From positions 18,977,984 to 19,041,983 of the forward strand of contig NC_092564.1 of assembly GCF_037975245.1 (NCBI RefSeq): 64,000 nucleotides of DNA. Reading direction: 5' to 3'. Numbering within the stretch: the stretch's first letter is position 1; each line of letters starts with the position of its first letter. Source of the DNA: Apostichopus japonicus. Lineage: Eukaryota > Echinodermata > Holothuroidea > Aspidochirotida > Stichopodidae. The position numbers and the translations under genes are program-made. This document shows positions 4,896-54,119 of the stretch, piece by piece. Below the pieces are notes generated by a model. The model saw only the letters and a list, made by a program, of their open reading frames with translations. It searched no databases and was not told where the DNA came from.

Positions 4896-5475
4896 CAAGG
4901 GCGGCGAAAGCACTTTAAATCTGGGGGGGGGGGGCACCGATATCAAAGGGCACTTTGCAGAAATTCGATTGGACTGATGCAGCCTTATATTCAGTACCCT
5001 TTTTAACTCTTATTGTATGATCTTATTTGCGTATACACATCACTCCATCAACGCCCCCCCCCCCCCCTCAAGGAAAATATGCATACTAGCACTGCACTAT
5101 CCAATGTGCAAATTGGGAAACAAGGAACAAGTTTTCTTTTGAGACAAAATGAGGTGAAAACATGCTAGTTGCTAATGTAGGAATCTTCCGAATTCATTAA
5201 AAGTCAGGGGCGTAGCCAGGACTGGCAAAGTTGTATGCACGACTATCTTAGCGGAGCGCCACCATCAGTTGGCGCGGAGCGTACAAGAAAATTTTTGGTT
5301 TTACAAACCCCTCAGATGGCCGGAAACGGCCCTTCCCGAGTGTTCATTCTGGTTCCCTGGCCTCTTGCTAACTTGAGACACCTCAATTTTTATGTAGAAA
5401 AAGGGCACATTTTTAACCTGAGGAAAAGTGGGGGGGTCACGTGCCCCCTGTGCCCCCCCGGTTCCGCCGCCCTTG
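4896..5475. mobile_element. chimeric hAT MITE, CAAGGGCGGCG family
   Basis: The left end CAAGGGCGGCGAAAG and right end GGTTCCGCCGCCCTTG form a TIR. The 8-bp duplication AGTATTAC is exact (4888-4895, 5476-5483). The right part, from 5205, starts with CAGGGGCGTAGCCAGG, the left end of a different MITE family, yet lacks that family's right end. The same fused structure recurs at 60613-61257, so the chimera has been mobilised as a unit. Confidence 0.87.
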
Positions 5476-6044: not shown

Positions 6045-6660
6045 GGAAAGGGTGGGCTATGCAATTTATTTGATACGTTTTAAGTTTTTAGACTAGACCT
6101 GCATGTTCTTCCAGATATCTTGAAGAAGATGGAAGAAGATGGCATCGGGAAGAAGATGAGAGAAGACGGACAGGGGGCCTGGGAAAGGTTGGGTTATAAT
6201 GTATTGATTTGTTTCAATGTTTTTGTAGACCTGTTCTTTCAGATATCTTGAAGCAGACGGGCGAGGGCTCTGGAAAAAAAAAAACTTGGAAGAAGACGGA
6301 CGGGGGCCTGGGAAGGGGTGGGTTCTGCAAAGTATTTGATTTGTTTTAAATGTTTTTGTAGACCTGTTCTTTCAGATATCTTGAAGAAGACGGGTAGGGG
6401 CTCTGGAAGAAGATGGAAGCAGACGGACGGGGGGCAGTGGCGGAGCGTCCATACAGTCAGGGGGCGGATATCCCCCTGACGCTCCTGATGCTCCGCGCCA
6501 ACCTGTGGTGGCGCTCCGCTTAGATAGTGTCGAAAGCGCCCCTACGGACCATTCTCGCCCCTGACCAACACCCCTAGCTCCGCCACTGACGGGGGGCCTG
6601 GGAAGGGGTGGATTATGAAAAGTATTTGTTTTTTCCGAGTTGTTCTTTCAGTTATCCGTA
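6045..6660 (+). repeat. ~129-bp minisatellite, about 4 copies
   Basis: The landmark CCTGGGAA recurs at 6178, 6307 and 6597. After removal of the 162 bp added by the 6435-6588 insertion the spacing is about 129 bp each time. Each unit holds CCTGTTCTTTCAGATATCTTGAAG, here split by variation, then purine-rich GAAGAAGACGG, then GGAAGGGGTGGG. The first copy is the most diverged. It has no coding potential. Confidence 0.75.
6435..6588. mobile_element. short hAT MITE inside the 129-bp minisatellite
   Basis: The ends CAGTGGCGGAGCG and TAGCTCCGCCACTG are flanked by ACGGGGGG on both sides (6427-6434, 6589-6596). At 154 bp it is the shortest copy in the window. Its inner GGCGCTCCGCTTAGATAGTGTCGAAA matches, in reverse, the body of the 26868-27251 copy, so both belong to one family. 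Target sequence is present once in neighbouring minisatellite units, as expected for a real insertion. Confidence 0.82.
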
Positions 6661-36300: not shown

Positions 36301-39300
36301 TTGCAAATTTCAGCATGTTAAAAATTTGGGATCGATTCCGATGACCCTTCACCGTTCAATCACTCATTTGGATTATCAGAGACCATTCTTCTCAGTTTTT
36401 ATCTGTAGTAGTTGTTTTAAAAGTCTACAATCGTATCTCCATCATGTCTGAATGGAACAATGCCATCTGCACCCAGCTTGTACAACATTGTCTTTTGCTC
36501 TTATCAAGACTAAATTCTGCTTTGTCATCAAAGGTAAAGTATATATATATATATAAAAGTAAGATATATATTCATCTATAAGCCTCTTCCAAGGAGGCAT
36601 CCTGTTTACTTATGACTTTAACAAACACGATCGACAGATTAATCGACTAAAATGAACCGGGGAAAAAAAAAAGAAAAAAAAAGAAGAGAGAATGGTGCCA
36701 CCCCTGGGAACTGATTTTGATCTTACTTAATCCAATAACAACCCACATATCTTCTAAAAAGTATTTTGTTAGTTTACTTCACAATCTACTCGACGAATAA
36801 TTTTCGTATAGTTTCACTTCATTATTATCAGCATTATCTTGATTTTTTTCCATTTCCCAGTCCTGTTAAACCCCTATGTGTTTCTTTGTGTCTTTATCGT
36901 ATTGAAGATTGTTACAGCTCATTTGTGATTTAAATGCAGGTAGTTATGCAAACCAAAGCACTAAAACAAACAGTAGATCTACTCTTATGCTGGATCTCAT
37001 AGAACTCTGTGTACTGCTACTGCATGATCATGTAATGATCACGTCGTCAAGGCATGGTTGTCAAGGCGAGTCACATGTTTACACTTCTATAGGCAATGTT
37101 ATCAGAGTAAATCCTCCGGTATACTTACAGTAAGTGCAGGGATATTTATCTTGGGTACAAAAGGCCAGTGAGTCAATGTTTTCTTTATAGAATCGTCAAG
37201 GTTTTTTTTAACAGGGGTGAGAGCTGCTTGTAAGTCAGTAGATTTATTTTGTTTGTTCAGAACTTAAACCACCACTAAAAGAGACGTATTATGGTACTAT
37301 TACTTAACCCCCCCCCCCCCCGGCACACTGCATTTTGTATCGATTTCTTGTGTTAAAGTTTAGGATTTTTTACTTACCGGGGGTGAGAGGTCGTACAGTA
37401 GATTTATTTCGTTTGTTCAGAATTTAAACGATCACTAAAAGAGACGTATTATGGTACTATTACTTAAACCCCCAGCACACTGCATCTTGTATCGATATCT
37501 TGTGTTAAAAGTTTAAAGTTAATTTTGTGGCCATGTGTGCTTGACAGTGAGAAAATTTACACACATGTCTACAGTATGTACACAGACAATGGGCATTCCA
37601 TTGCAGCAACCCACAAAACCGTTGTATATTTTACAACAACTCCAAATGTGGAACTGACTCCTGGCAACCCCCTCCCCCTCCTCCGCTTGCCCCCTGAACA
37701 CCCATTTCTTTTAAAACAGTTTTACTATGCAAACCTGAATTTTCAGTCCAAGTGATTGTGGAGTCAAGTATATATATATATTTTAGAAGCAAACTGCTTC
37801 AAAAGCAAGTTTTATTTGTTTTGAATCAGCACTGAACTGATTTAAAGAGCAGCTTGGTTTGATCCGTATAAATGTCAACAAAATTAATTTCAAATATTCG
37901 CATGCAGGTATTACAAGGTTTTTCGGTCATGGCATGTATGGTTATAATTTCAATTGAAATACTGATTTTCTCTCAAGTATTCACTTCCACAAATAGCCGT
38001 ATCTATATTTAGTCCAACGTTCCTTCCGATTCCTCTAATATTTCATTATACTTAAGAGTTATGTAGGCAAAACCCTGCAGCAATGGAGCTGTTTACTATG
38101 AAATCTATTCCTTCCCCCAAAAATTCTAAATCGCAAGGATTTATTTGCAACAACTACAGTTTATTTGCGGGTAACCAGCTAGTATACCAGTATTGTATGC
38201 TAGTGCATTCAAGTGCTCAAATAACTATTTGTCAATTGAATTTACAAGCGGTTCAAAATAATTGGTAAAGTTCATCAATTAAGTCATTTTAAAGTGATCT
38301 CATCGCTCCTTTAATTCATCCGTTCCACTCTTCTTCAACCTCGACCCGTTGTCACAAATTTCTCTGTGCTGATTTGTGTGTGTTCATGGTTGCGTGCGTG
38401 TGCGTGCGTGTACTATGTATGTTTATTCGATTACTTGTTAAAGTCATAATAGTTTATATTGATTTCTTTTTCTTTTACACACCAGGTGGATTTTTATTGC
38501 TAGATGGCGAGACCTTTAAAGTGAAAGGCAACTGGGAGGCTCCTGGATTCAATCCGTCGTTCGGATATGATTTTTGGTATCAGCCGTACCATAAGGTGTT
38601 GATCAGTACCGAATGGGGAGCCCCGAAGGCCTTCTTGAAAGGATTTGATCCCAACGACTACGCCAACGGTGAGTGCGTCGATAGATCCATCATCGGACAC
38701 TCGATATAGGGTCATGGAGCTCTCAAGACTCATTTGACAGAGAGACAGAAAAATAAAAAGGAAGGAATCCTACAGCTACTCTACACATGTTATCATCAGC
38801 CCAAAAGATGATATATTTTGGCTGCTTGCCATAATTTCGATCTGTATGGTAAACTGTTACCTGATTTGAAAAGATTAGATTAGAAAGTTGGCAATTAAAA
38901 CACATCAGACAAAATATTGACTTTTTTTTTTGGGCTTCCATTTCAGGTCTGTACGGAAAGAGCCTGCACGTCTGGGACTGGGATAGCCATAAATATCTCC
39001 AAGAGATTAATCTCGGTGACGAAGGGGGCATCCCCTTGGAAATCCGGTTCTTGCACAATCCACGAGCATCGGAAGGGTTCGTCGGATGCGCCCTGGCCTC
39101 GTCAGTTTACAGATTCTACAAGGCATCGGTGAGAGGATACTTTTTCCTTCCAAATTCGATTAAAGAAACCAAATGAGAAGGAGACAAAATGAAGAGAATG
39201 TGTCCGATTTAGGCACATCGTAATATCTTCTTCTGAAGTTTGATCCATCTCTGACCAATTAAGGCTATTGAAGAGTGTTTACCCTTAACTGCACAAATCT

Positions 39301-42300
39301 TTTATAGTTACTGTAGCTTAAAAAAAAAATTAATATTACTTGGCTTTTTCACTTGAACTTGGCTGTATATCTTGTGATTATTGAAGTATATGACCAAGCT
39401 ATGAATATTCTCATATTTTTGGATCTGCTCAATTTTAAGACAGAGATCTACATCAAACATTTAGGCTATTTATTAGTAAGCTTTGGTTCTTTTGCAAATA
39501 TTAATTTTATTTATGCCATATGGTACTGTGTCAGTGTGCATGTATGTATATACTGTATGTGACGAGTTTGCTTTTTGAATACGATAACTCAAGAAGTATT
39601 CACAATAGTGAGTTCCATACTTGGTATGTGGATCCTTCTTATTGAATGCAAAACCCTATTGTTTTTTGTTATGAAGGTCAAGGGTCATCTGAGGTCACCA
39701 AAGTTTCATCCGAGGTGTAGAAGTAAATTTGTGTCCACAATTGTTAATAGAAGGCTTTTATTGTTTCTTGTGAAGTCTGTGCTTAATTCTATTGTTTCCT
39801 GGCTCATGTTTGATGGACTAAGGAATATTAACGAGATTTTTTTTTATTTTAAGTATCAGTCCTACCAGTCTTACTTAGAATTGGTTGAGTATGGTACATA
39901 TACAGATATTGAAAAAATCCATCTTTATAAGAGCATTGCTTTTATGGATGGAATTCAATTCATCAATAAAATCTTGACACAATTTGCTCAATTACTGCAT
40001 GACAAGAATTAGTCCATTAGCCATAGGTTGCATTTTTCAGCTCTCTTGACCTCAACTTACTGAAACTTTATCTCTTCTGCAAACAGACTGATTAGTTTGG
40101 AAGAGTTGATTTGTTCACACCTTGCCATGTCTGCCTTGATCTGATAGTGATTTGGCTACTAGCTGTGTGAAGAGTTGCATAATAGATGAATAGGCAGCTC
40201 AACTGAGGTGTGAAAAGATGGGACTGATCACTCAGCCAACCAACTGGAAAAACCTGCCATTCAGTACAAACGGCGGGTTTTTGGATGCAACCTATAGCTA
40301 ATGGACACTTTCTTGTCATGTGAAAAGCTTTAAAGCTTTTCAGTAATTTGTTCCACCATCGATTGTACTACACAATGCAAACCGAGAGGATTGTTTCAGT
40401 TAAATGGTGTCCCTTGAATTCAAGGGACACCATTTAACTGAAACAATCCTCTCGGTTTGCATTGTGTAGTACAATCGATGGTGGAACAAATTTACCGACT
40501 TTGGCGTAATCGGTGTTCTTTGAGGTGGCTTTTTCTATGGTACTGCACTAGCTGTGTTGACTAATTGGTGTAAATGATGCAAGTCATACTGTACACAGGG
40601 TATAACAGAAACATGATTGACACCAACATAAATTTTTAGATTCACTGGTGTTATTGTAACAGTAGATTGTTTAATCACATAACATCATCACATTACACAA
40701 ACTTTGTGAGTATCCAGACCACAATTTTGAAACCTTCCTGATAAATTTACTCCTTACACATTCTTTCGTTATCAGAACGGTTCATGGGAAGCTGAAAAGG
40801 TCATTCAGGTCCCACCAAAGAAAGTTGATGGCTGGGCTCTACCCAATATGCCAGGTACAGAACTTTGTGTTAACCATTTTTACTGGAAATTTTCAGAAGT
40901 GGTGGCAGTGCATTTTAAAGAATATGCTTAGAATGCTTTGGAAAGTCAATTCTATCTATAATTCGCCCAAGCAGCTTTAATCTATAAGACTGTATGTGTT
41001 TGTCCCACTGATCATTTGTTTCCAATCTGTTTCACAGAAGTGATCAATCTTGCCAGTACAAATGTTACCAAAGTTTAGTTTATAATCCTGCTTGTATCAG
41101 TCATTTTCCCTTGGTTGTTGTACAACCGTGTTTACCCGAAACCTTCGTTCTTGCAATTGCTATCAGATATATAGTCATATATTAACAGCTCTATTCGTAA
41201 GCCAGATAAGGTCACATATTATCAGCTCTATTTGTATTGTAAGTCAGAGAAACAGAAAAGCTCCATGTCATATTTATTCTTTGCATTATACATGCCACAT
41301 TTATTAGCTTAAGACTGATCAAGTTATCTTTTGATGATTCAGCAGTTCTTGGCATGACATAGACATTTTCTTTCAGTGAGGAGATTGTGTCTCTTGTTGC
41401 TGGTTACCAGACTGAAATGATCGTGAAATTAGAGGCTCAATTTAGAAGTTTGTTATATATGACAGTCCTACACAAAATAGAACATTTTGTGTTCGAGTCA
41501 CATGTTTAATATCTATATTGGTTTTCATGAAAGGTTACCCAGTCTTTGAACTGCATGTATGTTTAAAGTACACGCCTCCCACACGCACATATATGTAGTG
41601 TGTGGCTGCTCCTCGTAAAGCAGATTACTGCCTTTCAGGCGCGGGAGGGCCTATTTTACGCATCTACCGGTCTAGTTCCTCACGAACCGTCAAGTTTGGG
41701 GGACACCACTGATCTCATGAGTATCTCAAATTAGACAGGAGTCTTGTTTTTGGTTCACATGGTCTGACTAAGAACATCGTTAATGTGAAGTCTACTTGCC
41801 CACGAATGATCGTTCCGTCCGTAGTTGATACCGATTATTATTCCGTCCTTTATTTTTCAGGTCTAATCACAGACATCTTGCTCTCTATGGATGACCGTTT
41901 CCTCTACTTCAGTAACTGGATTCACGGAGACATCAGACAGTACGACGTGTCGGACACAAGAAACCCAAAGCTAGTCGGACAAGTATGAGTCATCTTTAAT
42001 AACTCCACATAAAACTTTATGCATATGAAATAATAATGCGCTAATTATAAACAAAACAAAATAGTTGTCAAAGCGCCGTACATATATAGTTTGAATAGAA
42101 AGAAAAGCAACAACAATAATGCAACAATGAAAACTAATTACAAATCAAATTGAAAAATGTTTAGCATAGAGGTAGGCTTTTATTTTAGATTTGAAAAGTG
42201 ATATAATAGGTATACATTTTAAATGATTTGGGAGGGAATTCCACAACTTGGGACCAGAAACTGAAAAAGCACGGTTGGCATAGGTAACCCCATTGGTTCT

Positions 42301-45076
42301 AGGTACTAGGAGGGTATTGAATTTTGACTGATGGGTGGAACGCTTATATTGTTTTACTAATAGAAGTTCGGAAAGGTAATTTTGAGATAACTTGTTATAA
42401 ATACAATTGTGGATTAAAATAAGGACTTTGAAAGGTATATGCGTTTCAATTGGAAGCCAGTGTATTATGCTTTAAGAAGAGGGGTAACTTGTGTAAACTT
42501 AGTTTGCTTGAAGATAAGTTTGGCAGCCCAGTTTTGAATTTTTTGTAGTCGAATTACCAGATTTTTTGGAAGGCCAATGAAAATAGAATTACAGAAATCA
42601 AGGCGGAATGTAACAAAACTTGGGAGAGATATGGTCTGACTGCTGTTTGGTACGGGTTTCTGTCTAGATTTAGGGGACATCAATAAACTCAGTTTTAGAA
42701 GGATTAAGTTCAGTTTGAAAGTAACCCACTAATTAACTAAGTCACTATGTTCAGTATTTCCATAATGGAAATTAACTTGATGTAATTTTCTTCACGATAG
42801 TAACATTTCTTAACGACCATCATCATATCTCTCAATACAAACTTGATTCAAGCACTCAGAAATAACGACACTTAACGTGACATTAGGCAGAATTTTATTG
42901 TCGAGATGCTTAACTCTTACAAATGAGGCAAATTAGCGTCGACAGCTGGCAATGTATCTTTATAGTTTAAGGACGTTCACCACTTAAAATGAGATGTCTG
43001 GAATGCTCCTTTAAGGCTTAGTTATTTAATGATGTCCTCTTCTCCTTTGTCCAGCCCTGCAGAATATTAAATAATTTGTTTCTTTAAATTCTAGAAGCTC
43101 AAACTGTAGTGTTCTTTTTATGTGTATGCAAACACGAGAACACCCTTGAATGGTCACCCAACAACATTTATCCTTGGTAAAATTTGAAATCCATTGTAGA
43201 CACGTTACTTGAGGCCCTTTGAAGAACTGACATAGTAGTCAGTGTACTAGACTAAGTAGACCAGCCACTTTGATGAATCACTGACGATTAAAGGGTTATT
43301 GCTCAAAAACTAACAGTGGTTGTATACTGTACAGAGAGAGAGGTGGAGGATGCGTAGTATTAAAGAGCTGCATGCTTGAAGTTTTTGGGTTTTTCAGAGA
43401 AGCTCTGGTAAATGGGAATAAGAAAGTAGAGGTGGTTGTAACTGTGTATTTGTCAGAGATGGTCGGGTAGAGGAAGTTAAGGTAGTAAGGAGTAAGTGTA
43501 GGTAGAACTGTCTTAAATTGTATTTATATCAGAAAATGCTTGGGTAGAGGAGACGGTACATTGGATTTTGTCAGAGAAGTCCTAATAGAGGAGGGTTGGT
43601 AGGTAAATGTAAATTTTAGAGTGGATACTTGAGTTAAGTATAGGAGGGTGGGAAGGTAGAGTAAGTTTTAGATTGGATACTTGAGTTTAGTATAGGAGGG
43701 TGGGTAGGTAGAGGTAAGTTTTAGAGTGGATATTTGATAGGTAAATTGGATTCTGTCAGAGAATTCCTAGTAGAGGAGGTTGGGTAGGTAGAGGTGAATT
43801 TTAGGGTGGATACTCGATAGGTAGATGTGGATTTCCGTTTAGTATATTTGTCAGAGGTGTTCAGGTAGAGGAGGATGCTTTAGGTAGAGGTGAATGTAAA
43901 AATTCTTTGGTTTTACTGAGATAGAGGACAAGTATGTAAACAATCAAAAAAACATTCAACCTTGAATCGGTTCACGTCATCCTCAAATTCCTGTTCTCTT
44001 CAGTTATTTCTGGGTGGATCAATCACTGCTGACGGACCTGTGAAGGTCACCCACGACGAGGAACTACAAGAACAGCCGCCGTCTGTGTATGTCAAAGGTC
44101 GTGAGGTGACCGGTGGGCCACAGATGTTGCAGCTGAGTTTAGACGGCAAGAGGCTTTACGTTACGAATTCCCTCTACAGCGGATGGGACAATCAATTCTA
44201 TCCGGATATGATGAAGTAAGATCACTGGAATCACTTTTGAAATGGGACACAGACCCAACCATCCTTTTTTAGCTGTATACCAGAAATCCCCACCCCACCC
44301 CCTTTCCCCCTCCCCCTCCCCCCTCCCCTCCCCCTCCCCCCTCAAATAACTGAGCAGAAGCTTGCTCCGTTTGGGAGATATCGTAGTGTAACAGTCGTGA
44401 ACAGGGGCTATAGTAGGCCTGTTTTATTAATCTAGTCAAAGTGCCAATGCAGGGATCTGATACCTTTTATTTTTGTTTTTGTTTTTATTTTCCTGTTTTC
44501 ACTGTGGAATGTCAACAGGTTTTGACCCTGAGAAGATCGTCAGTAATTCGATCATGCAGTTTGCAAACCCATCTCTATTATAAAATATTGAACGTTCTTC
44601 TAAGCTGAGCTGTTTTGGGGAAGTTATTCATGACAGTTATACCTCTATTCACATGAAATGTTTATTTAGCCACACTAGGGAACCATGCAGGTTTTAGGTG
44701 CGTATGAGATTTGAAATCTGTTTGAAAAAGAGAACTAAATTCTTCAGTCCATCATTAGCAACCTGCCTTATGCACAAGGTACTCTTTCTGAATTCTATGA
44801 ATCCATCTCTGTGTTATTCTGTTTCTTAACGCCTTTCTGTCGTTCATGCAAGTTCCTTTACTTTTATGTCTCTCTCTTCTTTTGTCGTATAGAACTGGCT
44901 CAGTCATGCTCCAAATCGATATCGATACCAAAAAAGGAGGAATGACCCTCAACCGGAGCTTCTTGGTGGATTTCGGAAAGGAACCCAACGGACCTTGCTT
45001 GGCTCACGAGATGCGATATCCAGGAGGGGACTGTTCCTCTGATATCTTTCTCGTGGAGACCGAGGCAAAACTGTAG
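24156..45076 (+). CDS. SELENBP1: selenium-binding protein 1 / methanethiol oxidase, 9 coding exons seen
   Basis: Exons 24156-24316, 26533-26718, 34689-34815, 38486-38668, 38947-39128, 40776-40854, 41861-41982, 44004-44215 and 44893-45076 all have AG/GT borders and join in phase, giving about 478 residues, close to the 472 of human SELENBP1. The order follows the family: [36 protein letters not shown] (the CSSC of the selenium-binding cysteine), [64 protein letters not shown] and [16 protein letters not shown]. Family knowledge: a cytosolic enzyme oxidising methanethiol to H2S, formaldehyde and H2O2. The C-terminus is longer than the human one (about nine residues after DI). The first exon, perhaps only ATGG, is not placed. 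No break is seen. Confidence 0.95.
24317..26532 (+). other. SELENBP1: SELENBP1 intron 2
   Basis: No recognisable element apart from a short G run near 24427 that resembles a MITE edge. Ordinary intron sequence. Confidence 0.6.
26533..26718 (+). CDS. SELENBP1: SELENBP1 exon with the CSSC motif
   Basis: 62 codons, phase 0 at both ends: [20 protein letters not shown], then [12 protein letters not shown], then [21 protein letters not shown]. The CSSC matches the selenium-binding Cys57 region of human SELENBP1. Confidence 0.95.
26868..27251. mobile_element. hAT MITE, CAGTGGCGGAGC family, in a SELENBP1 intron
   Basis: The left end CAGTGGCGGAGCTAGG and right end GACGCTCCGCTACTG are flanked by an exact AGTACTAC duplication (26860-26867, 27252-27259). 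It is 384 bp and contains AAGCGGAGCGCCACCACAGG, shared in reverse with the 154-bp copy at 6435. It encodes no protein. Confidence 0.88.
27260..29049 (+). other. SELENBP1: SELENBP1 intron 3, unique part
   Basis: Open frames on the reverse strand (27877-28140, 28395-28643) show no known domain. Nothing else is recognised. Confidence 0.45.
29058..29331. mobile_element. hAT MITE, CAGGCGCGTAGC family
   Basis: The ends CAGGCACGTAGCC and GGCTACGCGCCTG are flanked by TTTCTAAA (29050-29057) and TTTCTACA (29332-29339), a duplication with one change. It is 274 bp with the family body and an A-run, and is somewhat older than the 30324 copy by the decay of its duplication. Confidence 0.82.
30324..30615. 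mobile_element. hAT MITE, CAGGCGCGTAGC family, nested
   Basis: CAGGCGCGTAGCCAAGG and TGGCTACGCGCCTG are flanked by an exact TGAGAGTC (30316-30323, 30616-30623). It is 292 bp and is the best-preserved family copy here. It is inserted into the Penelope-like part of the element 29658-31175. Confidence 0.9.
30624..30967 (-). pseudogene. Penelope-like retroelement fragment (C-terminal of RT)
   Basis: Reverse-strand frames give [11 protein letters not shown] and, in another frame, [19 protein letters not shown] then [19 protein letters not shown]. This block (HWxLL...LFP-P-AYRR-NLRDLLV) is characteristic of the region between reverse transcriptase and GIY-YIG nuclease in Penelope-like elements, from family memory. 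The piece is short, in two frames, and cut by the MITE at 30324-30615. Inactive. Confidence 0.5.
31864..32236 (+). repeat. left arm of a ~370-bp inverted repeat pair
   Basis: The stretch from GGGTGTGAAGAC to GTCTTCAATGCCTT matches, in reverse complement, 35008-35373. Shared landmarks: GAATGAGGTGTAACAGAAGT, ACACTAGTGTA, GGACATCTCAGGTCCAGCTA and TTGGGGCGAGTCTTCAATGC. Divergence looks like roughly 15-20% with small indels. No conserved protein is encoded. Confidence 0.75.
32723..34156. mobile_element. 1.43-kb composite hAT element in SELENBP1 intron 3
   Basis: The left end CAGCGACGTAGCCAGGAAT and right end CCTGGCTACGTCCCTG are flanked by an exact ACCTCAGT (32715-32722, 34157-34164). Its left part matches the right half of the 4896-5475 chimera (GCACGACTATCTGAGCGGAG). 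From about 33035 to 33200 it carries a partial left half of that chimera (CAAGGGCGGAAGCAC). The rest is non-coding filler. A stray CTGGCTACGCCCTG at 33485 may be the remnant end of another copy. Confidence 0.83.
34160..34460 (+). repeat. 26-bp direct duplication near SELENBP1 exon
   Basis: TTATTTCAGCAACACCAGAC followed by GATGTC occurs at about 34164 and again at 34424. Both copies contain a TTTCAG that looks like a 3' splice site. It could be a small local duplication or a decayed extra exon start; no open frame continues convincingly from either. Confidence 0.6.
34689..34815 (+). CDS. SELENBP1: SELENBP1 exon with the HTSHC motif
   Basis: Reads [20 protein letters not shown], then [20 protein letters not shown], ending one base into a glycine codon before GT at 34816. 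It follows an 8-kb intron filled with hAT elements. Confidence 0.93.
35008..35373 (-). repeat. right arm of the ~370-bp inverted repeat pair
   Basis: Reverse complement of 31864-32236. The two arms flank the composite hAT element and the SELENBP1 exon 34689-34815, with about 2.8 kb between them. The reverse-strand open frame through this arm has no known domain. Confidence 0.75.
35720..36090 (-). mobile_element. hAT MITE, single-unit relative of the 9161-9604 copy
   Basis: The ends CAGTGGCGTAGGAAGG and GGTTCCTACGCCCTTG are flanked by an exact GAGTCGTC (35712-35719, 36091-36098). The body is the reverse complement of the 9161 copy but has only one 80-bp unit, so the tandem expansion there is derived. 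371 bp, in SELENBP1 intron 4. Confidence 0.9.
36099..37200 (+). other. SELENBP1: SELENBP1 intron 4, unique part
   Basis: Contains a short (TA)n at 36540-36556 and an A-rich stretch at 36662-36684. No gene is recognised. Confidence 0.5.
37203..37512 (+). repeat. two tandem copies of a ~155-bp unit
   Basis: GTAGATTTATTT(T/C)GTTTGTTCAG followed by CACTAAAAGAGACGTATTAT and GGCACACTGCAT occurs twice, about 160 bp apart. The first copy carries a C run (37309-37322) that is short in the second. It lies in SELENBP1 intron 4. Confidence 0.75.
37513..38485 (+). other. SELENBP1: SELENBP1 intron 4, 3' part
   Basis: No element is recognised. A short TATATA run lies near 37770, and the sequence ends in the polypyrimidine tract before exon 38486. 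Confidence 0.5.
38486..38668 (+). CDS. SELENBP1: SELENBP1 exon, [10 protein letters not shown] block
   Basis: Completes the split glycine, then [39 protein letters not shown] and FDPNDYAN, ending one base into a glycine codon before GT at 38669. Confidence 0.95.
38947..39128 (+). CDS. SELENBP1: SELENBP1 exon, [12 protein letters not shown] block
   Basis: Completes glycine, then [32 protein letters not shown] and [17 protein letters not shown]. It ends in phase 0 at GT 39129. Confidence 0.95.
39570..39715 (+). repeat. dispersed GGTCA-bearing repeat copy
   Basis: Same order as the 51-336 units: ACGATAACTCAAGAAG, CTTGG, CCCTATTGTTTTTTGT, AAGGTCAAGGGTCATCTGAG and GTCACC. It lies in SELENBP1 intron 6. 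The hexamer pair at 39675-39687 is AGGTCAAGGGTCA, one change from DR1. Confidence 0.6.
39998..40320. repeat. 323-bp stretch bounded by 36-bp inverted repeats
   Basis: CATGACAAGAATTAGTCCAT at the left and its near complement ATGGACACTTTCTTGTCATG at the right bound the segment; the inner part GCCATAGGTTGCAT pairs with ATGCAACCTATAGC. It may be a small MITE. A clear target duplication is not seen. It abuts the palindromes at 40321-40492. Confidence 0.6.
40321..40342. repeat. 22-bp perfect palindrome
   Basis: TGAAAAGCTTT is followed directly by its reverse complement AAAGCTTTTCA. It is two bases away from a much longer palindrome. Confidence 0.85.
40345..40492. repeat. 148-bp perfect palindrome without spacer
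   Basis: Two 74-base arms meet at GAATTC (40416-40421) and read as exact complements outward to AATTTGTTCC / GGAACAAATT. It has no loop and no mismatch that I can find. It lies in SELENBP1 intron 6, 284 bp before exon 40776. Either a recent foldback in the genome or a foldback artefact of library or assembly. Confidence 0.9.
40776..40854 (+). CDS. SELENBP1: SELENBP1 exon, VIQVPPKKV block
   Basis: A short exon of 79 bases: [20 protein letters not shown] then ALPNMP, ending one base into glycine. The 148-bp palindrome lies about 280 bp upstream in the preceding intron. Confidence 0.93.
41861..41982 (+). CDS. SELENBP1: SELENBP1 exon, [16 protein letters not shown] block
   Basis: [20 protein letters not shown] then [12 protein letters not shown] and PKLVGQ, phase 0 at GT 41983. 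Confidence 0.95.
42070..42735 (-). pseudogene. 3' end of a CR1/L2-type LINE (broken)
   Basis: On the reverse strand, in two or three frames: [20 protein letters not shown], then [60 protein letters not shown] and a stop after [10 protein letters not shown]. These are the conserved C-terminal blocks of CR1/L2-like reverse transcriptases ([16 protein letters not shown]). A 3' tail with ACGGCGCTTTGAC follows. A frameshift lies near 42470 and a deletion removes sequence just upstream of the NSIFIGLP block. It sits in SELENBP1 intron 8, antisense to the gene. Confidence 0.82.
42736..43330 (+). other. SELENBP1: SELENBP1 intron 8, unique part
   Basis: No element or gene is recognised. Confidence 0.5.
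43335..43925 (+). repeat. irregular purine-rich minisatellite
   Basis: Units of roughly 55-65 bp share GGTAGAGG, TTTTAGAGTGGATAC(T)TGA and TTTGTCAGAGA (for example about 43610, 43670, 43725, 43800). Copies are diverged and of uneven length. It lies in SELENBP1 intron 8, ending about 80 bp before exon 44004. Confidence 0.65.
44004..44215 (+). CDS. SELENBP1: SELENBP1 exon, LFLGGSI to FYPDMM block
   Basis: [20 protein letters not shown], then [20 protein letters not shown] and [10 protein letters not shown], ending two bases into a lysine codon. A dense polypyrimidine tract starts about 75 bases downstream. Confidence 0.95.
44287..44342 (-). repeat. polypyrimidine tract with G-quadruplex potential on the minus strand
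   Basis: Almost pure C with single T or A breaks: CCCCACCCCACCCCCTTTCC, then repeated CCCCCT. The complement has many G runs of 4-6 separated by one base, far above the usual G-quadruplex pattern. It begins about 70 bases into SELENBP1 intron 9. Confidence 0.8.
44893..45076 (+). CDS. SELENBP1: SELENBP1 last coding exon
   Basis: Completes lysine, then [40 protein letters not shown] and [18 protein letters not shown], with the stop at 45074-45076. Human SELENBP1 ends at ...SSDIWI, so the tail here is extended. Confidence 0.95.
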
Positions 45077-45168
45077 ACAATTAACCTTTATTTGGGGGGA
45101 TTCATCGCCATCAAAGATTGTGACATAGATGTGAAGGCCTTGGCTCTCTAAGCCATGTTCACATTTAA

Positions 45169-45356
45169 GAATGGAAGGGGGATCTCTGAATGGAAGGGGG
45201 ATCAGAATGGAAAGGGGATCAGAATGGGAGGGGGATCAGAATGGAAGGGGGATCAGAATGGGAGAGGATCTGAATGGGAGGGGGATCAGAATGGGAGGGG
45301 ATCAGAATGGGAGGGGGATCAGAATGGAAGGGGGATCAGAATGGGAGGGGGATCTG
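45169..45356 (+). repeat. 17-bp G-rich minisatellite, about 11 copies, downstream of the SELENBP1 stop
   Basis: The unit GAATGG(A/G)AGGGGGATCA starts at 45188, 45205, 45222, 45239 and onward. It begins about 90 bases after the SELENBP1 stop, so it is probably in the 3' untranslated region. Short open frames through it are repeats of the unit and not genes. The first AATAAA signal downstream that I see is at 45969-45974. Confidence 0.85.
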
Positions 45357-49165: not shown

Positions 49166-49444
49166 ATATCTGTACATGTTGTACGTATAGGTTATACCTC
49201 CGTGCGTGCGCTTATATCTAACTACAAGCCGGTTCATACTCGCTGCGTTTTCACTGCGTACGCAGCGCGCAGACCTATTTCGTTCGATCCGCTGTGTGTA
49301 AATGGACGCGCAGTGCGTAATCAAATTGCGCTGCTGCGTACGAACTTTTTGAAAATAAAAAAGGGTCGTGCACACTTATTGGATGCGTAGTCGGACATAT
49401 TGAAATTTTTCAACATTTTGTCGGATGCGTATTCATTCGCAGTG

Positions 49445-51057
49445 ATGGCAAAACTAATTAGTGACGATGAAAAGCTTATTGAAACAGTGCGCCTGTTTCC
49501 AAACCTCTACAATACATCATTGAGAGAGTACCGAGACACAGAGAGGGCAGTCAATTCATGGAAAGAAATTGGGAAAATATGCAGCAAAGATTGGAAAGAA
49601 TGTAAGGACAAATGGAGGAAACTGCGCGATGCTTTTGTGAAAGTAAAGAAGAGCATGAAGACCAAACGTGGAGACGGGGCCAAAAGGCAAACAAAGTGGC
49701 CATACTATGAAGTCATGTCTTTTCTTGGAGACCACGTCAAGCACAGAAAAACGGAAACAAACATGGGCGTCAGGTAAATTTAAACGTATTTTTAGTGGTT
49801 TAATTCAAATCAACCATTTTTCAAGTTTTTAAATGCACCCATGTGAAAAATATTTAAAGAGAAACAATAATGAGTCCAACAAAATTTAATTAGAAATAAC
49901 TTGTTAAATTAATAAATGTATAATAGTTGTTAATGTTAAAGATGTAGCTCCACTGAATGTATACCTCATTGGGTTTTGGGAGAGTCGGGTCTACTCTATG
50001 TCCTATATCATTCAAATCGTCTATTTTTCATTTTCAAGAGACGCCATAAAACAAGCCATAAAATTACTTGTCGTTTTCGAGAAACAGTTTTGTGTCAAAA
50101 TACACTATACAAGTTTAGCATTATGCATTGTTGACAAATTTCCTCAAGATAGCAATTTATATAAGGACATAAGTCTCTAGCTAAAAAAGGAAGGTACTAC
50201 TAAAAGTACTTAAGATCAATATCATGTTCGCAAAATAGTACAGAAAAGCTTTTTATACTATTGTAACGAGGCCCTCACATCTTTGAATAATAATTAACTA
50301 CATCGTCCGGCAGGTGCATTCATAACCAACGTTATTTGATTTGTTTTTATAACAAAGTGTACATTTAAATCATGACAAATAGGCCTTCAGTATATTAGGA
50401 ACAGAATCAAGAAAGATGTCATAAAAAGATTAATTTGAACTATCAATTATTTTCAGAACCACAGTTCTTTAGTTTGGTCCACAAATTTCTCAACGAATTT
50501 AATGGAAATCCACTTGCTCGAGAGGATTGTTAGTTAAAATCGCCAAGATCAAACTACCCCATTGAAAGCAACATAATGATTTATTAGACCATGGCCAGTC
50601 CAACATAATATAATTATCTGTAAAATTTACATTAATAATTCACAGATCTGAAATGCTAGAATATAAAGACCGGAGCTATGATACACTAGGTTCCGAAGAA
50701 GATTTAGAAAGCACCATCCTAAACCATTTGACGCCTACCAAAGAGCCATCATCAAGCCTATCATCAAGCACATCTTCATCTCCTCCAAATGAAGGACAAA
50801 AGCGAAAGAGTTGTTCTCCAGATGAATCGATCAAAGCCAAGAAAGCTAAGAGAGTCGACGCTGTGGACATGGCCATCCTGGACAGACTCGCCCATATAAT
50901 ATTGAGAGCAGATGAAGATGAAGATAGCCTGTTTGGTAGGATAATCGGTGCAACTCTGAAAAAGTTTTCACCGAGAGAGAAAGCCCTGTGTAAACTCAAA
51001 ATTCAGGAGGTGCTGTTTCAGCAGGAAGACCTCATATTTACTGCCACCGTAAGTTAG
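49445..51057 (+). CDS. MADF/Myb-like DNA-binding protein of the Harbinger transposon
   Basis: Two exons: 49445-49773 (AG|GTAAAT donor) and 50646-51057 (TTCACAG acceptor), joined in phase to about 246 residues. Residues 5-95 are a MADF domain: KLIETVRLFPNLYNTSLREY, then AVNSWKEIGKIC, CKDKWRKLRDAFVKVKK and KWPYYEVMSFL. The second exon has a Ser-rich linker, a basic KRKSCSPDESIKAKKAKR and a BESS-like C-terminal helix region. In Harbinger elements this partner binds DNA and brings the transposase to the nucleus and the ends (family knowledge). The frame is intact. The stop at 51055 overlaps a possible donor (ACC|GTAAGT), so the true end could differ. Confidence 0.8.
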
Positions 51058-52394: not shown

Positions 52395-54119
52395 TCAGAT
52401 AATTGTGTAGCTAGCAGATTGTCGCTTTCACAACATTACACACCAATTCTGGTGCTTAATCGATTGGTCGACGAAAGATCCGCCAACGTGCAGCGAGAAT
52501 GCCGAATGCATTCTCTGCTATTCGTCTTGTTCTGCTGAGTCGATATAAGTGTATATCTTGTGTTCATGGTCCAAGTTTGATCCTGTTCAGCAGATGATGA
52601 AAAATATAAATGTTATGTCCTTTGATCGCAGAAAAAAAAAACAAGAAGAAAAAAAGTACATTTTACACATGTCAAACGTTTCAAATGAGCAAATGAGATT
52701 ATTGTTTTATGTCAAAGTAGAAGATTTATAAATAGTGGTCTAAGAATGTAAGTTTCATTGAAACAAATAATAGGTAGCATTTATAAAAAAAAAAAAAAAT
52801 TCAGACGCTGGAAAACACTTGAACCCGTGGCAAGAGATTCATCTGGTAACAAAACTTGTAAGTTGCATACCTGGGAAAGGTCTCATCAGATTCGGCTTCA
52901 ATGGGAAAGCTTCGTCCCCAACAAACACCGGCGGAACTATTGTGTTGGTTCCTGGGAGTGCTCTTGGATCTGGGATGTTGAGTGTACCAGTGTTTAACTG
53001 CTTCCCAAATTCGCTTTCACTGAATACCCCACCATCACTCTCTCAACCAAATACACCAATGTCAACCATGACAAATTTGTATTGCGCATCTCCAACTGCC
53101 ATCAGTAAAATAGAGAATGTTCCCTTGTAGTTGAAAAAGTCACTTCCTTCAAAATTATGAAACAAATTTATATTCGCAAATAAACGGGACTGACGTGTGT
53201 TTGCCATCTAGACTATGGTCAAGTTGAGCAAGCCTTGCTTTTTAATGGACCTTCAGCAGTATCGCTTGTACTGTTAGGCCTATGTCATTGTGCTTTTTAT
53301 CACCTTGTTTTGTTTTGATGCTTTAAAATGTAATTGAATCCCTTTGACACTGCGGGAAATAAACAAACCAAGAACAATAACATGCCTTGCGTTCGTTCTT
53401 CGTGTCTGTAATTTTCAATAATAGGCCTACTATGATCGCTATATTATTTCCTATCTTAGGCCCTATAGTTTTAGTTTAAATCTACGAGACACTATTTCTG
53501 GTGTAGAAAGTTTGGCGATAAATTTTCACTCCATGAATGAACAACCCCAAAATTGATAAAATTGAAAAACATTTAAACCAACCTGAGTTTGCAGGTGACG
53601 GTACAACAACATGTTTGCCATCAATTGCGCCAAGGCACACAGGAAAGTTCCAGTACGACCAGAACTCTCTAGCAATTCTTTGCCAATCTTCCTTCGTCGG
53701 AAATTTTAACACAACATTATGAAGTGAATTCCAAATCGCGGCTGCCGTTTCCTTGAATATGCCATTTACGGTTGACTCTTCCCAGTCTGAAACTTATTGC
53801 AACAGTTTGATGTGAGTCGCCTGTTGCTAGCAGTCTCAACGTTACTGCCAACCGTTGAGATGGGCTGATGGGATACCGGTGAGTTCCAAAATGAACAAGT
53901 CGAGGTCCCACTTCTTGCAAAAGAGCATCAAAGCGAACCCTCGACATCCGGAAGTAGCGATGGTGGGTTTCTTCATCATATGGAATGGAATTCACCCTTT
54001 TCACTTCTTTGCTGATTCAAAGGGCGGATATACCATCGCCGCCCTTTTGGTCTTGACTGACGTCGATGATGAGCCAGCAACAGTAGTGACAGAAGTAACA
54101 TTTCCTCAATTCCATCCAT
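52395..54119 (-). pseudogene. Harbinger DDE transposase (DDE_Tnp_4), broken
   Basis: Reverse strand. The first part (54119-53583) gives MDGIEEMLLLSLLLAHHRRQ, RRWYIRPLNQQRSEKGEFHS, YFRMSRVRFDALLQEVGPRL, then KFPTKEDWQRIAREFWSYWN and FPVCLGAIDGKHV, with the first catalytic Asp. It needs frame changes near 53995 and 53770. A second part (53146-52871) gives [20 protein letters not shown] and [19 protein letters not shown], with the further catalytic Asp/Glu, and one in-frame stop after DIGVFG. A third (about 52555-52395) gives [20 protein letters not shown]. The parts are separated by GT-AG-bounded gaps. All landmarks match the family order; at least three defects make it non-functional as read. 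Confidence 0.8.

What the first reader, a model, noticed from the sequence alone, without database searches (positions are those of the whole stretch)
40321..40492. 148-bp perfect, spacer-free palindrome next to a 22-bp palindrome
Seen: two 74-base arms meet at GAATTC with no mismatch, and a separate 22-bp perfect palindrome sits two bases away. Long spacer-free palindromes are unstable and normally acquire a central asymmetry, so this is either very young, under a special process, or an artefact of foldback during library preparation or assembly. It lies in an intron close to an exon, where a transcript would form a long hairpin.
Basis: seen in the sequence. Interest (0 to 1): 0.7.

Follow-up and report, generated by a model that had tools for sequence, protein, structure and literature searches.

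The report
Copy-back palindrome in an intron
A 148-letter stretch inside an intron of what is probably a sea cucumber genome reads the same on both strands, most likely because a broken or stalled DNA end was copied back on itself during repair; it is a clean, long example of a known kind of mutation, not a new kind of genetic element.

Summary
Window 40345-40492 is a perfect, spacer-free 148-bp palindrome; 40321-40342 is a perfect 22-bp one. No other copy of the arm was found in the 671.6-Mb genome, so it does not look like a repeat element.

The surroundings suggest a history. A 323-bp MITE (39998-40320) ends flush against the 22-bp palindrome. Taking out the MITE and one TG of its apparent target duplication turns the 22-bp palindrome into a perfect 34-bp one, which overlaps the 148-bp palindrome by exactly AATT. 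Simplest reading: two back-copied tracts of 17 and 74 nt joined through a 4-nt microhomology (fold-back end joining or serial template switching), then a MITE landed in the smaller palindrome. This argues against an assembly artefact, as does the probable source, a PacBio HiFi assembly of Apostichopus japonicus (inferred from sizes), but no reads could be examined.

The site lies in an intron of an SBP56/selenium-binding-protein gene. A transcript would fold into a 74-bp-arm hairpin; I have no evidence that it is used. A new member of a known kind, of modest interest.

The parts
40345..40492 (.). 148-bp perfect palindrome without spacer; arms 40345-40418 and 40419-40492; 29 of 74 arm bases are G or C
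   Evidence: no other copy found in the genome
40321..40342 (.). 22-bp perfect palindrome, reading: the remnant of a 34-bp palindrome
   Evidence: only this place in the genome within 2 mismatches
39990..39997 (.). AATTACTG, the outer left part of the inferred 34-bp palindrome, now separated from the rest by the MITE
40323..40348 (.). Remainder of the inferred 34-bp palindrome after one TG is collapsed; its last four bases are shared with the large palindrome
40345..40348 (.). AATT, the overlap of the two palindromes, read as the microhomology joint
   Evidence: chance of 4 or more about 0.02 at a blunt join
39998..40320 (.). 323-bp MITE with 36-bp terminal inverted repeats (39998-40033, 40285-40320; 89% complementary)
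39996..39997 (.). Left copy of the apparent TG target duplication
40321..40322 (.). Right copy of the apparent TG target duplication
39129..40775 (+). Intron that holds all of the above (borders by GT/AG read by eye)
   Evidence: SBP56 matches on both sides
40776..40854 (+). Next exon of the SBP56 gene
   Evidence: for borders; Pfam SBP56 E 1.8e-05, 24.2 bits, below the curated cut-off of 34 for this 30-residue piece

Best explanation
A real, apparently single-copy inverted duplication made by copy-back DNA synthesis. Most likely form: the intron broke, or a fork collapsed, at ...GAAAAGCTTT|TTCAAGGG.... The left end was copied back for 17 nt and the right end for 74 nt, and the two new ends were joined through AATT, a net gain of 87 bp, leaving a 34-bp and a 148-bp palindrome that overlap by 4 bp. 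Later a 323-bp MITE inserted into the 34-bp palindrome with a TG duplication, leaving the 22-bp remnant. Shown: the palindromes, the 34-bp palindrome on collapsing the MITE and one TG, the 4-bp overlap, no other copy found. Inferred: the break, the enzymes, the order in time, and that both tracts came from one event. I expect no selected function.
For: Both palindromes are exact. No other copy of arm or 22-mer was found. Collapsing the MITE plus one TG lengthens the palindrome from 22 to 34 bp; P about 3e-4 for the six extra pairs. The MITE family tends to sit between identical 2-bp flanks: 8 of 19 sites against 1.95 in shuffles, P 0.0002; 7 of 18 without this site, P 0.00075. The palindromes share exactly AATT; P about 0.02 for 4 bp or more at a blunt join. 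Two-ended copy-back with a 4-nt overlap rebuilds the MITE-free sequence letter for letter (largely true by construction, so only a consistency check). In yeast, fold-back insertions at breaks run from 2 to about 150 bp, most under 14 bp, with 0-5 bp microhomology at the capture joint (PMC11724301, passages). Pol theta extends stem-loops from two terminal base pairs and can so create a microhomology for joining (PMC11292364, abstract and passages).
Against: No relative or second individual is held, so the one-armed ancestor is inferred. The yeast local fold-backs have a 41-nt loop, and in PMC7467729 short-loop hairpins were recovered mainly with Mre11 or Sae2 defects (medians 4 and 3 nt, against 36 nt otherwise); two spacer-free centres need pre-existing short palindromes, inter-strand switching or sealed ends. 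A 74-nt tract is long: Pol theta insertions are put at up to about 30 nt (passage in PMC11724301). A 4-bp overlap alone is weak. Only 8 of 19 MITE sites show the 2-bp pair, 12 of 19 show a 1-bp match (mean 5.61 shuffled), and the outer base of the pair (left -2 against right +1) agreed in only 0.32 of 22 sites while left -1 against right +2 agreed in 0.64, so the duplication rule of this family is not clean.
Confidence: 0.72

Rival explanations
1. Serial template switching at one replication fork rather than a two-ended break: the new strand turned back for 17 nt, jumped at AATT to the opposite strand downstream, copied 74 nt backwards, then turned forward again. This is a variant of the best explanation and shares its evidence.
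For: Inter-strand switches allow any spacer, zero included; short-range template switches are common (4017 significant events in six great-ape comparisons; PMC7954356, passages) and can make perfect hairpins in one event (PMC8794818, abstract and one section).
Against: By hand, a single four-point event does not fit: the left flank carries only 17 bp and the right flank only 74 bp of the inverted block, so at least two switch pairs are needed, each ending without a spacer.
Confidence: 0.35
2. Sequencing or assembly artefact: a fold-back during library preparation or a consensus error added the second arm.
For: Perfect arms without spacer are what fold-back artefacts look like; no reads were available to me.
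Against: Arms stop after 74 bp in two different flanks; a second palindrome overlaps by 4 bp and seems to have been split by a MITE after it formed; the probable source assembly rests on HiFi reads at about 64-fold (PMC10344927, passages; species inferred).
Confidence: 0.08
3. A fold-back type transposable element or an unknown palindromic MITE.
For: Long terminal inverted repeats and an A+T-flanked site beside another MITE.
Against: No other copy at E up to 10 (the search skips very common words); no matching flanks (TTCAGT left, TACCGA right).
Confidence: 0.04
4. A functional hairpin RNA gene (young miRNA or siRNA source) kept perfect by selection.
For: Predicted stem of -131.9 kcal/mol, z -29.7, in an intron of the + strand gene.
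Against: The fold follows from the palindrome itself; 0 of 11 Rfam matches reach the family's gathering score and most appear on both strands; no small-RNA data.
Confidence: 0.05
5. Hairpin-forming transposase (hAT- or RAG-like) sealed the ends and the hairpins were opened far from the tip.
For: Sealed ends would give spacer-free centres on both sides (recalled mechanism, no call).
Against: No shared target duplication at the two tips beyond TT (junction printed); recalled footprints are a few bases, not 17 and 74.
Confidence: 0.04

Closest known systems
Local fold-back inverted insertions at double-strand breaks in yeast (PMC11724301, abstract and passages seen)
   Same: Inverted copy of sequence beside a break, 2 to about 150 bp, joined with 0-5 bp microhomology
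   Different: Here no spacer at the centres, apparently copied at both ends, in an animal genome and without a known break
Short-range template switch mutations, four-point model (PMC7954356 passages; PMC8794818 abstract and one section)
   Same: A local event makes a perfect inverted repeat from neighbouring sequence
   Different: Two back-copied tracts in a row, so one four-point event does not suffice; no ancestor to align
Theta-mediated end joining with stem-loop extension (PMC11292364, abstract and passages)
   Same: Back-copying makes a new 3' end whose microhomology serves for joining
   Different: 74-nt tract is long for this enzyme; the enzyme is not testable here
Perfect inverted repeats catalogued across genomes (PMC13155455, passages)
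   Same: Perfect arms with zero spacer, the predominant spacer length in eukaryotes there; longest perfect human arms reported as 140 bp
   Different: Spacer-free eukaryotic repeats there tend to be AT-rich; this arm has 29 of 74 G or C, about the window's average

Membership tests
Copy-back inverted duplication (fold-back or template switch) | One arm is a reverse-complement copy of adjacent unique sequence | tested here: met
   Arms 100% complementary; no copy found elsewhere
Copy-back inverted duplication (fold-back or template switch) | Microhomology at the joint | tested here: met
   4-bp AATT overlap once the MITE and one TG are collapsed; chance about 0.02, so weak by itself
Copy-back inverted duplication (fold-back or template switch) | Ancestor or relative with a single arm | not testable with these tools
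   No relative of this genome is held
Loop-primed fold-back inversion (yeast type) | Spacer or loop kept at the centre | tested here: not met
   Spacer is zero at both centres
Single four-point template switch | One inverted fragment between two forward flanks | tested here: not met
   Two inverted tracts, 17 and 74 nt; judged by hand
Transposable element (fold-back element or MITE) | Several copies in the genome | tested here: not met
   Only the locus itself at E up to 10; that search skips very common words
Transposable element (fold-back element or MITE) | Target-site duplication at its ends | tested here: not met
   TTCAGT left and TACCGA right of 40345-40492
microRNA precursor | Match to a known family at its gathering score | tested here: not met
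   0 of 11 listed matches reach it
microRNA precursor | Small-RNA reads from the stem | not testable with these tools
   No read data
Sequencing or assembly artefact | Spanning reads carry only one arm | not testable with these tools
   No reads; indirect evidence against

The most novel reading that the evidence does not exclude
Both ends of one germline break were copied back and then joined through microhomology: a two-sided fold-back whose scar is a pair of overlapping spacer-free palindromes. If the pair signature recurs it would be a repair outcome distinct from the one-sided fold-backs described in yeast (PMC11724301), and a single-event source of perfect intronic hairpins.
Probability: 0.35. 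Interest if true: 0.45.

Novelty: new member of a known kind. Interest (0 to 1): 0.3.

Why it matters
It shows in one animal intron how a perfect hairpin may arise in one step, with a transposon insertion as a relative time marker that helps to tell mutation from artefact without reads. The pattern of two palindromes sharing a microhomology could be searched for genome-wide to measure how often break ends are copied back in animal germlines. For this locus alone the consequences are probably small.

Tried and rejected
Repeat-element origin of the palindrome: disfavoured, no other copy found. MITE as the cause of the palindrome: disfavoured; the other 18 sites tested have empty-site palindromes of 8 bp at most, and the palindrome's right arm pairs with sequence on both sides of the MITE without containing the MITE. 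Single four-point template switch: does not fit by hand. Known RNA family: only sub-threshold, hairpin-shaped matches. Transposase hairpins: no shared duplication at the tips. Paper searches that gave nothing on this locus: sea cucumber with palindrome terms (76 papers held 4 of the 5 terms, 10 listed, none of the 10 mentions sea cucumber), and template switching with de novo miRNA terms (12 of 46 listed, 6 of 69 listed). Pfam found nothing for four other frames tried at 42147-42728 and 53484-54016.

Limits. The genome-wide rate of such palindromes could not be measured: the 303-kb survey is small and biased, 31 of its 32 loci having been picked as MITE hits. Rows dropped in the target-duplication test: one search set aside 11 partial alignments and 2 with repeated flanks, leaving 22 sites; one search required exact ends (L024, L031, L042 lost), merged L022 with L018 for shared flanks, and added L004, leaving 19. 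MITE copies beyond those fetched were not looked at (one search scored 40 of 170 candidates).

Full report
Observation. The 148-bp palindrome at 40345-40492 and the 22-bp palindrome at 40321-40342 are exact and two bases apart. Chance is excluded for the large one (about 8e-35 expected in 671.6 Mb). The next longest spacer-free perfect palindrome in the window is 20 bp. In a 303,140-base survey the other 20 spacer-free matches with arms of 12 or more all belong to one (TA)n run.

Where it is. The window lies in a genome of 671,581,487 bases in 35 contigs. Contigs C16 (46.04 Mb) and C23 (18.20 Mb), the largest and smallest of those whose length I saw, are close to the extremes reported for the 23 chromosomes of the sea cucumber Apostichopus japonicus (18.21-46.02 Mb; total 671.6 Mb in 34 scaffolds; PacBio HiFi at about 64-fold, hifiasm; PMC10344927, passages). 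The species is inferred from these numbers, not shown. Frames at 38473-38685, 38943-39125, 41857-41985, 44001-44219 and 44891-45070 match successive parts of Pfam SBP56 above its cut-off; the short piece 40767-40856 matches the part in between at E 1.8e-05 but below the cut-off. By splice signals the intron is 39129-40775, and the exon starts 283 bases after the palindrome.

The neighbour. A 323-bp element at 39998-40320 with 36-bp terminal inverted repeats is a MITE: 40 of 170 candidate places were scored, nearly all of the scored matches spanning about its full length, and the closest other copy, L013, is 99.4% identical. It ends where the 22-bp palindrome begins. Among 19 independent full-length sites, 8 have an identical 2-bp flank pair (1.95 in shuffles, P 0.0002), 12 a 1-bp match (5.61, P 0.0024), none 3 bp. 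At this site the pair is TG/TG. The rule is not clean: in 22 sites the outer base of the pair agrees no more than about chance (0.32) while left -1 and right +2 agree in 0.64. Collapsing MITE and one TG gives AATTACTGAAAAGCTTT/AAAGCTTTTCAGTAATT, a perfect 34-bp palindrome; chance of the six added pairs is about 3e-4. None of the other 18 sites has an empty-site palindrome above 8 bp. So the MITE most likely landed in an older palindrome and did not make it. Copying from a MITE-free homologue after insertion is possible but less simple.

The joint. In the MITE-free sequence the 34-bp palindrome ends with the AATT with which the 148-bp one begins: an overlap of exactly four bases (chance of 4 or more at a blunt join about 0.02). 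A left end copied back 17 nt and a right end copied back 74 nt, joined with that overlap, rebuild the sequence exactly. This is largely built in and shows consistency only.

Mechanism. Known processes supply each element: fold-back synthesis at breaks with capture through 0-5 bp microhomology (PMC11724301, passages), Pol theta stem-loop extension that creates a joining microhomology (PMC11292364), and short-range template switching (PMC7954356, passages; PMC8794818). I hold copy-back synthesis to be most likely (0.72). Within it I cannot decide firmly between a two-ended break and serial switching; the rival's 0.35 is its share within that class, and not additional to it. Spacer-free centres count somewhat against plain loop-primed fold-back.

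Age. No difference in 91 arm pairs gives a 95% upper bound of 8.2 My at an assumed 2e-9 per site per year or about 1.6 My at 1e-8. Two differences in 323 between the MITE and its nearest copy correspond to 1.55 or 0.31 My. The rates are assumptions, so this is a bracket; it does not conflict with the order palindrome first, MITE second, nor prove it.

Function. The RNA hairpin is very stable (-131.9 kcal/mol), which follows from the palindrome itself. None of the 11 Rfam matches reaches its threshold. I have no evidence of use and no data that could show it.

Novelty. Long perfect inverted repeats are rare but known: perfect human arms reach 140 bp in one survey with spacers up to 8 bp (PMC13155455, passages), and 718 near-perfect human palindromes exceed 200 bp according to a review (PMC7999016, passages). 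What may be new is the pair-of-palindromes scar; I did not search the literature for exactly that pattern beyond.

Noticed in passing
39998-40320: A 323-bp MITE family with CATGAC-type terminal repeats and many copies; identical 2-bp flanks in 8 of 19 sites; superfamily not assigned.
   Followed up: partly
L036 (C9:28213000-28222999): Three MITE copies in one 10-kb stretch, about 1.15 kb apart, as if carried by a tandem repeat.
   Followed up: no
49391-49774 and 50614-51054, + strand: MADF DNA-binding domain, then a BESS motif just below its cut-off: a regulator gene or a transposon partner protein.
   Followed up: partly
45168-45354: 17-bp G-rich tandem array of 11 copies soon after the last SBP56 exon match.
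   Followed up: no
42001-44000: Strong GC skew (0.293), the highest of the 2-kb bins of the window, partly over a 52-bp tandem array at 43589-43737.
   Followed up: no
5242-5280 and 6490-6528: 39-bp inverted repeats, 90% complementary, 1209 nt apart, perhaps the ends of another DNA transposon.
   Followed up: no
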